This document shows, in pieces, positions 768 through 27,453 of a stretch of 64,000 nucleotides of DNA. Under the pieces are notes generated by a model that had not been told where the DNA came from, did no database searches, and saw nothing but the letters and a program-made list of their open reading frames with translations. Source of the DNA: Thermincola carboxydiphila. GTDB taxonomy: Bacteria; Bacillota; Thermincolia; Thermincolales; UBA2595. Each line of letters starts with the position of its first letter. The first letter of the stretch is position 1. The stretch is taken from NCBI GenBank assembly GCA_016841725.1, contig JAENYP010000006.1, positions 1-64,000 on the forward strand, written 5' to 3'. The translations under genes and the position numbers were made by a program.

Positions 768-1112
768 ATGATTAAGTTTAAAAATAAAGAATTCAAATGT
801 TCCTTAGACGTCAGCGTTGATTTAATTGGTGGTAAATGGAAGGTTTTAATTCTGTGGAGATTAAAGGATGGTATTATGCGCTTTAACGAATTGAAAAGAA
901 CAATTCCAAATGTAACGCAAAAGATGTTAACTCAGCAATTAAGGGAATTGGAAGAGGATGGTCTAATAAACAGGAAAGTGTATGCAGAAGTACCCCCAAA
1001 GGTTGAATATTCGCTTACTCAATGCGGGAAAAGTCTAATACCCATTTTTGAAGAAATATGCGATTGGGGTGACAAATATCTAATGCAAAAGTCCGGAGGA
1101 CACATCACATAA
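768..1112 (+). CDS. HxlR-family winged-helix transcriptional regulator
   Basis: A 114-residue protein with the compact HxlR fold: a Cys near the N-terminus (about residue 11), then the diagnostic LIGGKWKVLILW helix, a recognition region (RFNELKRTIPNVTQKMLTQQLRELEEDGL), and the wing (PPKVEYSLTQCGKSL). HxlR proteins are small homodimeric repressors that often sense aldehydes, quinones or redox stress through the N-terminal Cys. The ATG at 768 is preferred over an upstream GTG at 759 because GAGGTGAT lies 4 nt before it. An inverted repeat upstream (720-747) suggests autoregulation. The usual divergent target gene is absent, since its upstream neighbour is only a doubtful small ORF. Confidence 0.88.
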   Translation: MIKFKNKEFKCSLDVSVDLIGGKWKVLILWRLKDGIMRFNELKRTIPNVTQKMLTQQLRELEEDGLINRKVYAEVPPKVEYSLTQCGKSLIPIFEEICDWGDKYLMQKSGGHIT

Positions 1113-1150
1113 CATTTTAGCCGTGTTTCCGCAGTTGAGCATGCAAAAAC
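1103..1150. repeat. Dispersed repeat, copy 1 (partner at 7613-7664)
   Basis: The sequence around TTTAGCCGTGTTTCCGCAGTT shares most positions over about 45 nt with 7613-7664, including the flanking ACACATC and ATGCAAAAA blocks. Both copies start at the 3' end of an intact gene and precede a broken or unassignable stretch. The type of repeat is unknown. Confidence 0.5.
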
Positions 1151-1512
1151 ACCGGCTAGTGATATCCCTGCCTGTCAGTTTCGGGATTAATTCCGCAATG
1201 TCAGTGATTTTCGTCCTGGATGTACTCAATTTAAACAGCTGTTTACAGGTATTCAGCTTGGTATTACTGTTTCTGTTGCTTCTTATCACAGGCAAGTTCC
1301 TTCAGGGTATCTGAGGCCGCCTGGAACAGGATGGAATACACACCCCTGGCATTTGGGGCAGTGCCTGTTGCGGCAGGAATTATATGAAATTTTCACATGC
1401 TCTTCACGTTTAAAACATCATCCTGCGCAAATGAAGATAAATACAGGTAGTATCCGCAGGCTTGCGGGGGAAAAGCCAAAAAAATAACATTTCTTGTTGA
1501 GGTGGAAATTAG
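1151..1512 (+). other. Unassigned stretch, possibly degraded coding sequence
   Basis: No intact gene is seen. A hydrophobic frame (1123-1314, with LVLLFLLLLI) followed by other frames with coding-like content suggests a decayed membrane-protein gene, but no family could be named. The only clear signal is GAGGTGG at about 1499-1505, which is the ribosome binding site of the next gene. Confidence 0.3.
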
Positions 1513-2735: not shown

Positions 2736-2915
2736 ATGATTAGAAAATGTTGTGAGTCTGATTTTGATAGTATCCACTCCATAGTTAATGATGCCGCACA
2801 GGCATACAGGGAAGTAATTCCCGCAGACCGCTGGAACGAAGAATATATGACTAAAAAAGAACTTTGCGAAGAGATTAATGACGGTGTGGTTTTTTGGGGC
2901 TGGGAAGAGTATTAA
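2736..2915 (+). pseudogene. GNAT acetyltransferase, N-terminal fragment
   Basis: A 59-codon frame preceded by GGAGG begins IRKCCESDFDSIHSIVNDAA and continues through PADRWNEEYMTKKEL to VVFWGWEEY. This is the usual first third of a GNAT N-acetyltransferase (strands 1-3). The acetyl-CoA binding motif (R/Q-x-x-G-x-G/A) and all later parts are missing. The stop TAA (2913-2915) overlaps the stop of the opposing XRE fragment, so the break point is within a few bases of 2910. It is probably non-functional. Confidence 0.75.
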
Positions 2916-3090
2916 TCCTCTGTAAAGGTAAATATTTCGTCAATTGTTGTATTCAAAGTTTTGGCAACATCGTAGGCTAGCTTCAATGAAGGATTATATT
3001 TCCCCTTTTCCAAATGAACGATTGTTTGACGGCGTACGCCGACTGCTTTAGCCAGATCCTCTTGGAATGCCTCAATTGTTTTTTGAGCTT
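2912..3090 (-). pseudogene. XRE-family HTH regulator, C-terminal fragment
   Basis: Reading leftward, the frame encodes [20 protein letters not shown] followed by [18 protein letters not shown] and TTIDEIFTF, ending in TAA at 2912-2914. This is the recognition-helix half of the short (about 65-70 aa) XRE regulators. The first helix and the start codon are missing: an in-frame TAA lies upstream and the sequence changes character near 3095-3108, where the structured segment begins. The fragment and the GNAT fragment converge with overlapping stop codons. Confidence 0.75.
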
Positions 3091-3107
3091 ATTCCGGCAC
3101 AAATAGG

Positions 3108-3395
3108 GTGTACGACTTTCAACTTAGTATTCTTCAAGCTGCCGTCGCAAGGTTAGGCTCGGGTTTATCCCATGAGATTGGAAACGCCAATCGCGATAAC
3201 GCGCTCTTAATGCTGCCTATAAATTAATGATAAGGAATGGATAAAGGAAATAAAACCTATTTTCATGATTATTTATACCGCGAAGCCTTCGGCCGGCGCG
3301 GCTGGGCAAGGTTAGGTGAAATTGTCGCTAAACATCACCTAAACTACGAGGTGTTTATTGGGAAGAGGTTGGGAGTCAACCTACCTAATCTGCCC
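3108..3395 (+). ncRNA. Highly structured RNA segment of unknown class
   Basis: This 290-nt noncoding stretch contains an unusual density of perfect helices in one strand direction. They include CTC-GGG/CCC-GAG (about 3158-3176), GATTGG/CCAATC with loop AAACG (3176-3192), GCG/CGC with loop ATAA (3193-3202), CCGCG/CGCGG enclosing GCC-TTC-GGC (3278-3301), CACCT/AGGTG (3336-3353) and AGGTT/AACCT (3366-3382). A long closing stem pairs GGGCAAGGTTAGGT (3304-3317) with ACCTAATCTGCCC (3383-3395), leaving one bulge. The motif GCAAGGTTAGG occurs twice (3147, 3306). The segment starts near GTGTACGAC, where the XRE gene is cut, and ends 7 nt before the flavodoxin ribosome binding site. A group II intron remnant, an IscB-type omega/HEARO RNA or a cis-regulator are possible classes. 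Confidence 0.55.
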
Positions 3396-3412
3396 TTAAA
3401 AAGGAGGATAAT

Positions 3413-3895
3413 ATGAAAACCTTGATTGTTTATGATTCAAAGCACGGTATAGTTCGAGATTGTGCTGAAAAATTAGAACATAAGTTTAAGGAAAAAGTTA
3501 CTGTTATAAAAATATCTAAAAAGAAGCAATGGCCTAACATTGACGAATTTGACAGCATTATTATTGGCGCTTCGGTTCATATTGGGAAGATCCAGAAGTC
3601 AATAAAGGACTTTTGTGAGAAGAATTTAGATAAGTTAAAACATAAGAAAGTAGGTATATTTTTATGTTCTTTGACTGAACCGGCAGAAGCTTATCATTAT
3701 ATTGAAGAACAGTTTCCAGAAGAACTTCAAAAACATGCAATAATAAAAAGTTGTTTTGGTGGGGCTGTTATCTTTGAAAGAATGAATTTTGTTGAACGAT
3801 TCATGATGAAGAAAATTACCAAGAGTTCAGAAAACATAAATAATGTCTCGGAGGATGCAATAGAGAGTTTCGTTCGAACGTTTCAAAAAGAGTAG
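3413..3895 (+). CDS. Flavodoxin-domain protein
   Basis: A 160-residue FMN-binding protein of the HemG-like flavodoxin group. The phosphate-binding loop is degenerate but recognisable at residues 7-15 (YDSKHGIVRDCA). The second FMN loop region IIIGASVHIGKIQ matches the flavodoxin beta-3 loop, and later KKVGIFLCSL and FGGAVIFERMNFVERFMMKKI match protoporphyrinogen-oxidase-like flavodoxins. Proteins of this type carry out small redox reactions in the cytoplasm; whether this one acts in heme synthesis cannot be told. It has a strong AAGGAGG site and lies directly downstream of the structured RNA segment, which may control it. Confidence 0.8.
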   Translation: MKTLIVYDSKHGIVRDCAEKLEHKFKEKVTVIKISKKKQWPNIDEFDSIIIGASVHIGKIQKSIKDFCEKNLDKLKHKKVGIFLCSLTEPAEAYHYIEEQFPEELQKHAIIKSCFGGAVIFERMNFVERFMMKKITKSSENINNVSEDAIESFVRTFQKE

Positions 3896-3922: not shown

Positions 3923-4495
3923 TCAGCCTCTTTTGCTGTAGTGATGGTTTGGGATTATGGGTATTGATCTTGCTTTAGTTTTTATCTGTTCAGAAGTAGA
4001 TACAGTTGGTTGAAGGTAATTATTTACAGGTTTTATGTCAAATAACGATGAATCGCCAAGTTTAGCAGCAATAAAGGTCGTAACCATACCGTATGCGGCG
4101 TGACTAACCATATACGACAGGTTACTGGCAGCGTCTTTTGGCCTTACAGTATTTTGGGGTAGGGCTCCAAGAGCGAAGGTGATGAATGAACCCATTGTTA
4201 TTCCGGAAAGTAGTCCCTTAGTTACTAGGCTGTCTCGACCGGTTTTTGACAGCAAATATACTGTTCCGACTCCTCCTAAAGAACCCATTCCAAAATCTAA
4301 TAAGCCTCCAAGAAACTGACCTTTAATGTTTGTTGCTTCATTTTTGTTTTTGACCCAAACTCCCGCTGCAGTGCCACGGAATGATTGTTGAGAGATCTTC
4401 TTTTTGACAGATAGTTCGTCGATTATAGTTTTTACCATATTTCCTGCTAAACCAGCTACGATTCCTAATGTGACCCTATCCTTTATTTTAAACAC
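3923..4495 (-). CDS. Four-helix membrane protein (paralogue group)
   Basis: A 190-residue membrane protein with about four helices. Its N-terminus (RVTLGIVAGLAGNMVKTIIDE) and late segment (SHAAYGMVTTFIAAKLGD) match the layout of the genes at 2193 and 42395. This one is longer: it has a hydrophilic insert after helix 1 and a polar tail of about 40 residues after the last helix. Function is unknown. Related short membrane proteins are common in Clostridia. It converges with the flavodoxin gene, and no partner gene is evident. Confidence 0.65.
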   Translation of the reverse strand: MFKIKDRVTLGIVAGLAGNMVKTIIDELSVKKKISQQSFRGTAAGVWVKNKNEATNIKGQFLGGLLDFGMGSLGGVGTVYLLSKTGRDSLVTKGLLSGITMGSFITFALGALPQNTVRPKDAASNLSYMVSHAAYGMVTTFIAAKLGDSSLFDIKPVNNYLQPTVSTSEQIKTKARSIPIIPNHHYSKRG

Positions 4496-4801
4496 CTATA
4501 TCACCCCAATAGTTTATTTATTAGTATTTTTCCTGATTTAGGCCTTGTTATTACTGGAAAAATAGTGGAGTTGTGTTCTTAAAAATACGGTTGCTGGTAT
4601 GTTACTGCAAAACAACATTTGCCGGGCCGGAAAATGTCTCTTTTATCCTTTCAATATGCTCAATTGTGGCAGCACGTGTTGGACGAAGCCGCGTGTCTAG
4701 GAGCAGTTATGGGGATTCAAAGCAGATGATGAAAATGATGTGCGACAATAAAAGAACGTGTTAATTCCAGGTCAATTTGAAGGGAAAGAAGGGAGAGTTC
4801 G
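4496..4801. other. No clear gene; possible coding remnant
   Basis: The interval between the divergent membrane-protein and cupin genes holds no convincing gene. Around 4660-4716 one frame reads LWQHVLDEAACLGAVMGIQ before two stops, which looks like protein-coding sequence without a recognisable family. An AAGGGAGAG site at about 4790-4797 serves the next gene. Confidence 0.3.
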
Positions 4802-5277: not shown

Positions 5278-5679
5278 ATGGAGTTAGATAATAATAACCA
5301 TTCAGTATTTCTCATGTATTACCACCTCGTTCTTGTTATAAAATACCGTAGAAAAGTAATTGATGATGTTATCTCAAATAGACTGAAAGAAATATTTGAG
5401 TATGTAGCACCTAGGTATAACATCACCTTACAAGAATGGAATCATGACAAAGACCATGTACATATCCTCTTCAAAGCTCATCCTAACACCCAATTATCAA
5501 AATTTATCAATGCCTATAAAAGTGCATCATCACGCCTGATAAAAAAAGAATACCGGCAAATACGTAGCTGCCTCTGGGAAGAAAACTTTTGGTCAAGAAG
5601 TTTTTGCATACTTACAACCGGTGGTGCACCGCTTGAGGTGATAAAAAGATATATTGAAAGCCAGGGTGAGAAGCTGTGA
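5278..5679 (+). CDS. tnpA: IS200/IS605 Y1 transposase TnpA
   Basis: A 133-residue HUH-superfamily transposase that cuts and joins single-stranded DNA at element ends. The metal-binding HxH motif is HVHILF at about residues 62-67. The catalytic Tyr is in the C-terminal helix (KRYIESQGEKL, about residue 126). Flanking family motifs YHLVLVIKYRRKV at the start and SFCILTTGGAPLEVI before the Tyr helix are intact. Length is normal and no stop interrupts it, so it may still be active. It overlaps tnpB by 4 nt, the usual arrangement. Confidence 0.93.
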   Translation: MELDNNNHSVFLMYYHLVLVIKYRRKVIDDVISNRLKEIFEYVAPRYNITLQEWNHDKDHVHILFKAHPNTQLSKFINAYKSASSRLIKKEYRQIRSCLWEENFWSRSFCILTTGGAPLEVIKRYIESQGEKL

Positions 5680-5927
5680 ATAAAGCATATAAATACCGCC
5701 TTTATCCGAACAAAGAGCAAGCCATTCTCATAAATAAAACCTTTGGCTGTGTTCGGTTTGTATACAATCGAATGCATGCTGACAGAAAGGCGATTTATGA
5801 GAAGTATAAAGACGATAGAGAAGCATTAAAGCGGCAAAAATATCCTATGCCGGCTGATTACAAAAAGGAATTTCCCTGGCTCAAAGAAGTGGATAGCCTG
5901 GCTCTTGCTCAAAGAAGAATGATATAA
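5676..5927 (+). pseudogene. tnpB: TnpB (RNA-guided nuclease) N-terminal fragment
   Basis: It encodes 83 codons beginning NKAYKYRLYPNKEQAILINK and TFGCVRFVYNRMHADRKAIY, the standard N-terminal domain of IS605 TnpB, ancestor of Cas12. The RuvC-like nuclease and zinc-ribbon regions, roughly 290 further residues, are missing. The frame changes after SLALAQ, where homologues continue with SLALANAQ, and ends in TGA/TAA-rich sequence. No reRNA-bearing right end is visible. It cannot encode an active nuclease. Confidence 0.9.
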
Positions 5928-7612: not shown

Positions 7613-7664
7613 CCGGTACACATCGGCTGACATTTAGCCGTGTTTCAGCAGTTCAAATGCAAAA
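7613..7664. repeat. Dispersed repeat, copy 2 (partner at 1103-1150)
   Basis: The core TTTAGCCGTGTTTCAGCAGTT and its flanks match copy 1 at most positions. Here CGGCT/AGCCG (about 7624-7640) can form a hairpin, a feature not preserved in copy 1. It lies between the CxxC protein and a broken deacetylase gene. Confidence 0.5.
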
Positions 7665-7677
7665 AGGAGACATAAGG

Positions 7678-27360: not shown

Positions 27361-27453
27361 AAAACCGACAAGGCAAACCCTTCGAAAGGCGGGGACGCAA
27401 AGCCACGGGTCCTATAAAGGAATGTTTGTTCAAGGACAGCCGGGTTACCGAAG
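27361..27453 (+). promoter_or_regulatory. c-di-GMP-I riboswitch aptamer (GEMM-I)
   Basis: The conserved core is evident: AGGCAAACC, a GAAA-containing P2 hairpin, GGGGACGCAAAGCC, a P3 arm (GGGTCC...GGACAG), and the closing GCCGGGTTACCGAAG. P1 pairs ACCG (about 27364) with CGGT (about 27440). It lies 140 nt upstream of the lipoprotein gene and is followed by a terminator. The P1 3' strand (GGTTT) can alternatively pair with AAACC at the foot of the terminator. Ligand binding would therefore favour termination (an OFF switch); this direction is an inference from the pairing. Confidence 0.93.

What the first reader, a model, noticed from the sequence alone, without database searches (positions are those of the whole stretch)
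3108..3395. Large, highly structured RNA-like segment of unknown class before a flavodoxin gene
Seen: at least seven perfect or near-perfect helices in one orientation, including a 13-bp closing stem (3304-3317 with 3383-3395) that ends 7 nt before the flavodoxin ribosome binding site, plus a repeated motif GCAAGGTTAGG (3147, 3306). Known: such density is typical of self-splicing introns, IscB-associated omega/HEARO RNAs and large cis-regulators. Inferred: it may have inserted here, because the XRE gene is cut at its left edge. I cannot name the class.
Basis: partly seen in the sequence, partly recalled or inferred. Interest (0 to 1): 0.62.

Follow-up and report, generated by a model that had tools for sequence, protein, structure and literature searches.

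The report
Broken IS110 transposon end, bridge-RNA remnant
The supposed unknown structured RNA before the flavodoxin gene is the broken-off left end of an IS110-family jumping gene, on the opposite strand, with about half of its guide ("bridge") RNA; it is an ordinary decayed relic of a recently discovered system, lying in what looks like an array of gene cassettes.

Summary
Minus strand 3322 to 3123 is the non-coding left end of an IS110-family (DEDD) insertion sequence. A profile from six homologous left ends, none from the window, hits the 64-kb window once, there (E 2.2e-32). Immediately downstream the minus strand reads MKVVHPICAGI, the first 11 residues of the transposase (intact relatives: MKVIHPICAGIDIHKK). 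The frame then breaks and runs into a truncated XRE gene. Relatives, including an intact 406-aa element in a same-genus genome (G002), carry a bridge-RNA-like region there, its ends closed by a co-varying helix. This copy also lost about 90 nt, including the donor-binding region and the RNA's 3' end, so it probably cannot act on its own.

The block ends at 3322; 3323-3395 is not part of it. Positions 3279-3322 resemble the 3' half of an attC site, and the surroundings look like an integron cassette array. The repeated GCAAGGTTAGG joins this attC-like core to a stretch inside the bridge RNA, as expected of a guide sequence (inference). Folding is only marginally better than shuffled sequence. 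Rfam release 15 gave no hit for this RNA even in the intact element.

The parts
2918..3085 (-). truncated XRE/HTH_3 gene, 5' end missing, abutting the IS relic
   Evidence: Pfam HTH_3 E 4.9e-13, profile positions 12-55 only; sequence
3090..3122 (-). first 11 codons of an IS110 transposase (TTG start; MKVVHPICAGI), frame broken just before the first catalytic Asp
   Evidence: translation; intact relatives read MKVIHPICAGIDIHKK; Pfam DEDD_Tnp_IS110 on relatives
3123..3322 (-). IS110 left end (non-coding), outer end at 3322
   Evidence: nhmmer profile from six other copies, single hit 3322-3133, E 2.2e-32; alignments; copies in the same genome and relatives
3123..3130 (-). junction of an internal deletion of about 90 nt that removed the donor-binding region and the 3' strand of the RNA's closing helix
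   Evidence: comparison with L013 8727-8915, 100% identical over 18 + 80 nt on either side
3227..3232 (-). possible -10 box (TATCAT) of the bridge-RNA promoter
   Evidence: conserved position in the alignment; inference
3128..3220 (-). remaining 5' part of the bridge-RNA region (starts near TATAGGCAGC; hairpin 3192-3176; 3' part deleted)
   Evidence: alignment; closing-helix co-variation in relatives
3147..3157 (-). guide-like stretch (CCTAACCTTGC) identical to the attC-like core at the element's outer end
   Evidence: exact repeat; matches of 6-11 nt between outer end and RNA of the same copy in nine copies; role is inferred
3279..3322 (+). attC-like 3' half (core box GTTAGGT at 3311-3317), either target-derived or built into the IS end
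   Evidence: 82% over 44 nt to an uninterrupted attC-like site in a relative, E 4.4e-4; local score 27 versus 13 anywhere else in the window
   Evidence: 0 of 200 shuffles score as high; the right arm lies outside every aligned homologue
3413..3895 (+). flavodoxin (Flavodoxin_5), probably a gene of the cassette-like array
   Evidence: Pfam E 2e-33; a 67%-identical homologue in G003 has no such leader

Best explanation
The segment is a decayed fragment of an IS110-family insertion sequence on the minus strand. It comprises the outer end of the left end, the promoter region and roughly the 5' half of the bridge-RNA gene, and the first 11 codons of the transposase. The rest (90 nt of RNA, the transposase body and the right end) is gone. 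In intact relatives the left end should make a bridge RNA of about 180 nt that binds the transposase; [quoted passage not shown] The motif shared by the left end's outer edge and the RNA fits a target guide aimed at an attC-like core site (RYYYAAC/GTTRRRY). Shown here: homology, element edge on the flavodoxin side, truncation, deletion, and a co-varying closing helix in relatives. Inferred: bridge function, the guide role, and present inertness.
For: The block recurs at five further places in the same genome and in four relatives, 72-100% identical. Several copies sit directly upstream of genes matching DEDD_Tnp_IS110, PF01548. G002 has an intact 406-aa transposase with the same left end. Independent profile: one hit in 64 kb, E 2.2e-32, minus strand. 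The transposase start codons are present in the window. Homology stops at 3322 in all copies that reach it while flanks differ. In 64 related IS110 loci the RNA ends pair better within than between elements (mean longest stem 9.4 versus 7.5 bp; 0 of 2000 permutations). The donor-side core CACAAATAAGTG is nearly invariant in 20 relatives. Layout (long non-coding region upstream of tnp, about 177-nt RNA) matches the published IS110 group (PMC11208160, PMC11187229).
Against: Within the six closest left ends the co-variation test is inconclusive, and RNAalifold gives only 14 pairs. The intact G002 RNA folds no better than shuffled sequence. No transcript or binding data exist. The right end of this subfamily could not be fixed. 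Guide assignment rests on matches of 6-11 nt among related sequences.
Confidence: 0.93

Rival explanations
1. The block is mainly a cassette-recombination site (attC): the conserved hairpins are attC structure and the flavodoxin is simply the next cassette; the IS110 similarity reflects an IS that carries or inserted into attC.
For: 3279-3322 matches the 3' half of uninterrupted attC-like sites in relatives. Other attC-like fragments lie at 1100-1171, 4644-4691 and 7619-7665. The repeated GTTAGG boxes look like cassette core sites.
Against: Only about 44 of 200 nt are attC-like; the rest aligns with the region between the left edge and the transposase start of intact IS110 copies. Transposase codons follow directly. 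The attC-like site folds only modestly (z -1.43). No integrase over the NCBIfam cut-off was found.
Confidence: 0.25
2. The segment is still a functional trans-acting bridge RNA or MITE-like unit used by transposases elsewhere in the genome.
For: Same-genome copies with transposase remain; several copies in relatives also lack the transposase.
Against: The donor-binding core and the 3' strand of the closing helix are deleted here; no right end was found beside it.
Confidence: 0.04
3. A cis-regulatory leader of the flavodoxin gene on the + strand, as first proposed.
For: The closing stem ends just before the ribosome-binding site and exceeds 200 shuffles.
Against: The closest flavodoxin homologue (67%) has no such leader. 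The right part, 3324-3412, has no homologue in the 61 genomes searched. The + strand fold is near random. No Rfam match.
Confidence: 0.04

Closest known systems
IS110-group insertion sequences with bridge RNA (IS621; Durrant et al. 2024, PMC11208160)
   Same: DEDD transposase family, long non-coding left end upstream of tnp, RNA of about 180 nt expected in relatives, conserved donor-side loop
   Different: this copy is truncated; transposase of about 400 aa; apparent helix between the two RNA ends; guide matches an attC-like core
ISEc21 seekRNA (IS110 type; Siddiquee et al. 2024, PMC11187229)
   Same: upstream non-coding region encoding a guide RNA
   Different: a different target (a site in IS3-family genes)
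IS1111-attC group (ISKpn4, ISPst6; Tetu and Holmes 2008, Post and Hall 2009, as cited in PMC11187229)
   Same: insertion sequences of the wider family that target attC sites
   Different: those have the non-coding RNA downstream of tnp and long subterminal inverted repeats; here it is upstream
Chromosomal integron cassette arrays
   Same: repeated sites with RYYYAAC and GTTRRRY boxes between unrelated genes
   Different: only partial sites in this window; site of about 165 nt is longer than the 57-142 nt given in PMC2727003; no confident IntI

Membership tests
IS110-family insertion sequence (IS110 group) | DEDD transposase PF01548 | tested here: met
   in homologous copies; the window copy keeps only the first 11 codons
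IS110-family insertion sequence (IS110 group) | long non-coding region upstream of tnp (not downstream, as in IS1111) | tested here: met
   302 nt upstream in G002 and C3 copies; about 300 nt in relatives
IS110-family insertion sequence (IS110 group) | complete element with both ends | tested here: not met
   transposase body and right end absent in the window; hence a relic, not an element
Bridge RNA | structured RNA supported by co-variation | tested here: inconclusive
   closing helix supported in 64 relatives, but not in the six nearest left ends
Bridge RNA | target and donor loops matching the flanking DNA and element ends | tested here: inconclusive
   6-11 nt match to the outer end; donor loop deleted in the window copy
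Bridge RNA | binds the transposase and directs recombination | not testable with these tools
   needs bench work
Group II intron, HEARO (RF02033), omega RNA | match to the family covariance model | tested here: not met
   no gathering hit; the only sub-threshold hits are unrelated families
Integron attC site | R'' (RYYYAAC) and R' (GTTRRRY) boxes in one site between cassettes | tested here: inconclusive
   both boxes present in relatives, only a 3' half at 3279-3322 in the window
Complete integron | integron integrase | tested here: not met
   best 220 bits versus cut-off 265 for the C3 recombinase; none over the cut-off in 13 genomes

The most novel reading that the evidence does not exclude
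An IS110-group subfamily whose bridge RNA is programmed for the attC core site lives in cassette arrays of a lineage where integrons are hardly known, and its left end carries an attC half-site, so that transposition and cassette recombination could exchange parts.
Probability: 0.35. Interest if true: 0.55.

Novelty: new member of a known kind. Interest (0 to 1): 0.3.

Why it matters
It closes a potential new RNA class and shows how bridge-RNA relics look to structure-based readers: Rfam release 15 did not detect this RNA even in an intact element, so such fragments will keep appearing as unknown structured RNAs. The attC link, if confirmed, would extend attC targeting from the IS1111 group to the IS110 group and offers naturally programmed target guides to test.

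Tried and rejected
Rfam at gathering and permissive thresholds: nothing credible. Group II intron, HEARO, omega RNA: no match at the finding. Flavodoxin leader: not conserved. RNAalifold and pair counts on the close set: too few distinct sequences. Empty-site search with the pattern ATTTCRYCTAACCATAAAT: hits little different from the reversed-pattern control. Plasmid collection: no match. Class-level transposase search reached only 10 genomes. I first placed the IS right end at CATAAAT from two copies, but their flanks do not show a common target, so the right end stays open.

Full report
What is there. The two GCAAGGTTAGG repeats, several hairpins and the 13-bp closing stem exist. The + strand segment folds only slightly better than shuffled sequence (z -1.26); the minus strand does somewhat better (z -2.07). 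Rfam has no credible match.

Homology. Searching the window's own genome with 3060-3416 gave five further places with 72-100% identity, clustered on two contigs; relatives have more. In copies at C3 and C37 the block lies directly upstream of genes for DEDD_Tnp_IS110 transposases, on the strand that is minus in our coordinates. In the window, the minus strand reads MKVVHPICAGI right after the block and then breaks into an XRE fragment. All copies that reach it share the outer edge ATTTC(A/G)(C/T)CTAAC, at window 3322, and have unrelated sequence beyond it. A profile built without the window finds only this place, on the minus strand, E 2.2e-32.

What was lost. A second partial copy (L013 8727-8915) is identical to the window over 18 and 80 nt but has about 90 nt between them. 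That stretch holds the part that aligns with the nearly invariant CACAAATAAGTG/GAGCACG core of the relatives and the 3' strand of the closing helix. The window RNA is therefore incomplete.

The RNA in intact relatives. A genome-collection scan gave 80 related IS110 loci. Same-genome pairs show elements of about 1,660-1,680 nt with about 300 nt before tnp. The RNA region begins and ends with complementary stretches that differ among elements, for example GGATAAGCAGA/TCTGCTTATCC, AGGGATA/TATCCCT, GAGAAGC/GCTTCTC. Stems within elements are longer than between elements (9.4 versus 7.5 bp, 0 of 2000 permutations); shared ancestry inflates such a test somewhat. On the six nearest left ends the pair count is inconclusive. 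The layout fits the published bridge RNA / seekRNA of IS110-type elements (PMC11208160, PMC11187229).

The repeat and the attC link. The outer edge contains RYYYAAC and its complement GTTAGGT (3311-3317), the attC core-box consensus (from general knowledge). A scan for attC gave a repeated site in relatives, starting ACATCRYCTAACA close to gene ends and, in L140, ending GTTAGGTG before the next gene. Partial sites lie in the window at 1100-1171, 4644-4691 and 7619-7665. The 3' half of the L140 site matches window 3279-3322 (82%, E 4.4e-4). The RNA contains the same motif in the same sense; in nine copies the motif in the RNA tracks the outer edge of the same copy in most cases (G1a and WIN/G7 are not the best match to their own). 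This is what a left target guide would look like in the IS621 scheme. Two readings remain open. Either the attC half is target DNA next to the IS, supported by uninterrupted sites in G009 and G006. Or it is built into the IS end, supported by the similar left-end hairpin of L040/L041, whose local repeat has a different 3' half but, in L041, the same core box GTTATCTG. Integron status itself is unproven: the tyrosine recombinase next to one copy scores 220 bits against a 265-bit cut-off for integron integrases, and none passes in 13 genomes.

The closing stem. Its left arm is the attC-like end and its right arm (3383-3395) lies in sequence without homologues. It exceeds 200 shuffles. A degenerate ACATCACCTAAAC at about 3339-3351 suggests further attC remnants, which are quasi-palindromic; I could not resolve this.

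Verdict. An IS110 left-end relic with a truncated bridge-RNA gene: confidence 0.93 for the identity, about 0.35 for the attC-programmed reading. Ordinary as an object, mildly interesting for its setting.

Noticed in passing
window 1100-1171, 4644-4691, 7619-7665: Fragments of an attC-like repeat on the + strand; the first starts at the stop codon of an HxlR gene. The first 8 kb looks like a decayed integron cassette array (HxlR, methyladenine glycosylase, GNAT-like fragment, XRE fragment, flavodoxin, cupin).
   Followed up: partly
window 2736-2915 and L013 11874-12407: A 59-aa N-terminal fragment of an acetyltransferase-like gene; a full-length relative (177 aa) is in the same genome on contig C3.
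   Followed up: no
window 5278-5927: IS200/IS605-type TnpA (Y1_Tnp) followed by a short TnpB N-terminal fragment (HTH_OrfB_IS605).
   Followed up: no
window 27363-27453: c-di-GMP-I-GGC riboswitch aptamer, 68 bits, above the gathering score.
   Followed up: no
L052, L057, L074, L077, L089, L090 (left end near 2685-2702, right end near 4351-4385): Related IS110 elements appear inserted antisense between start codon and Shine-Dalgarno sequence (..CAT[IS]..CCTCC), suggesting bridge RNAs aimed at ribosome-binding sites.
   Followed up: partly
L016 4258-4328: Sub-threshold group II intron domain hit (32.4 bits, E 0.002) just beyond the intact IS110 element.
   Followed up: no
L013 3165-4313: Tyrosine recombinase with an N-terminal extension, 220 bits to the integron integrase model (cut-off 265), directly beside an IS110 copy.
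   Followed up: partly
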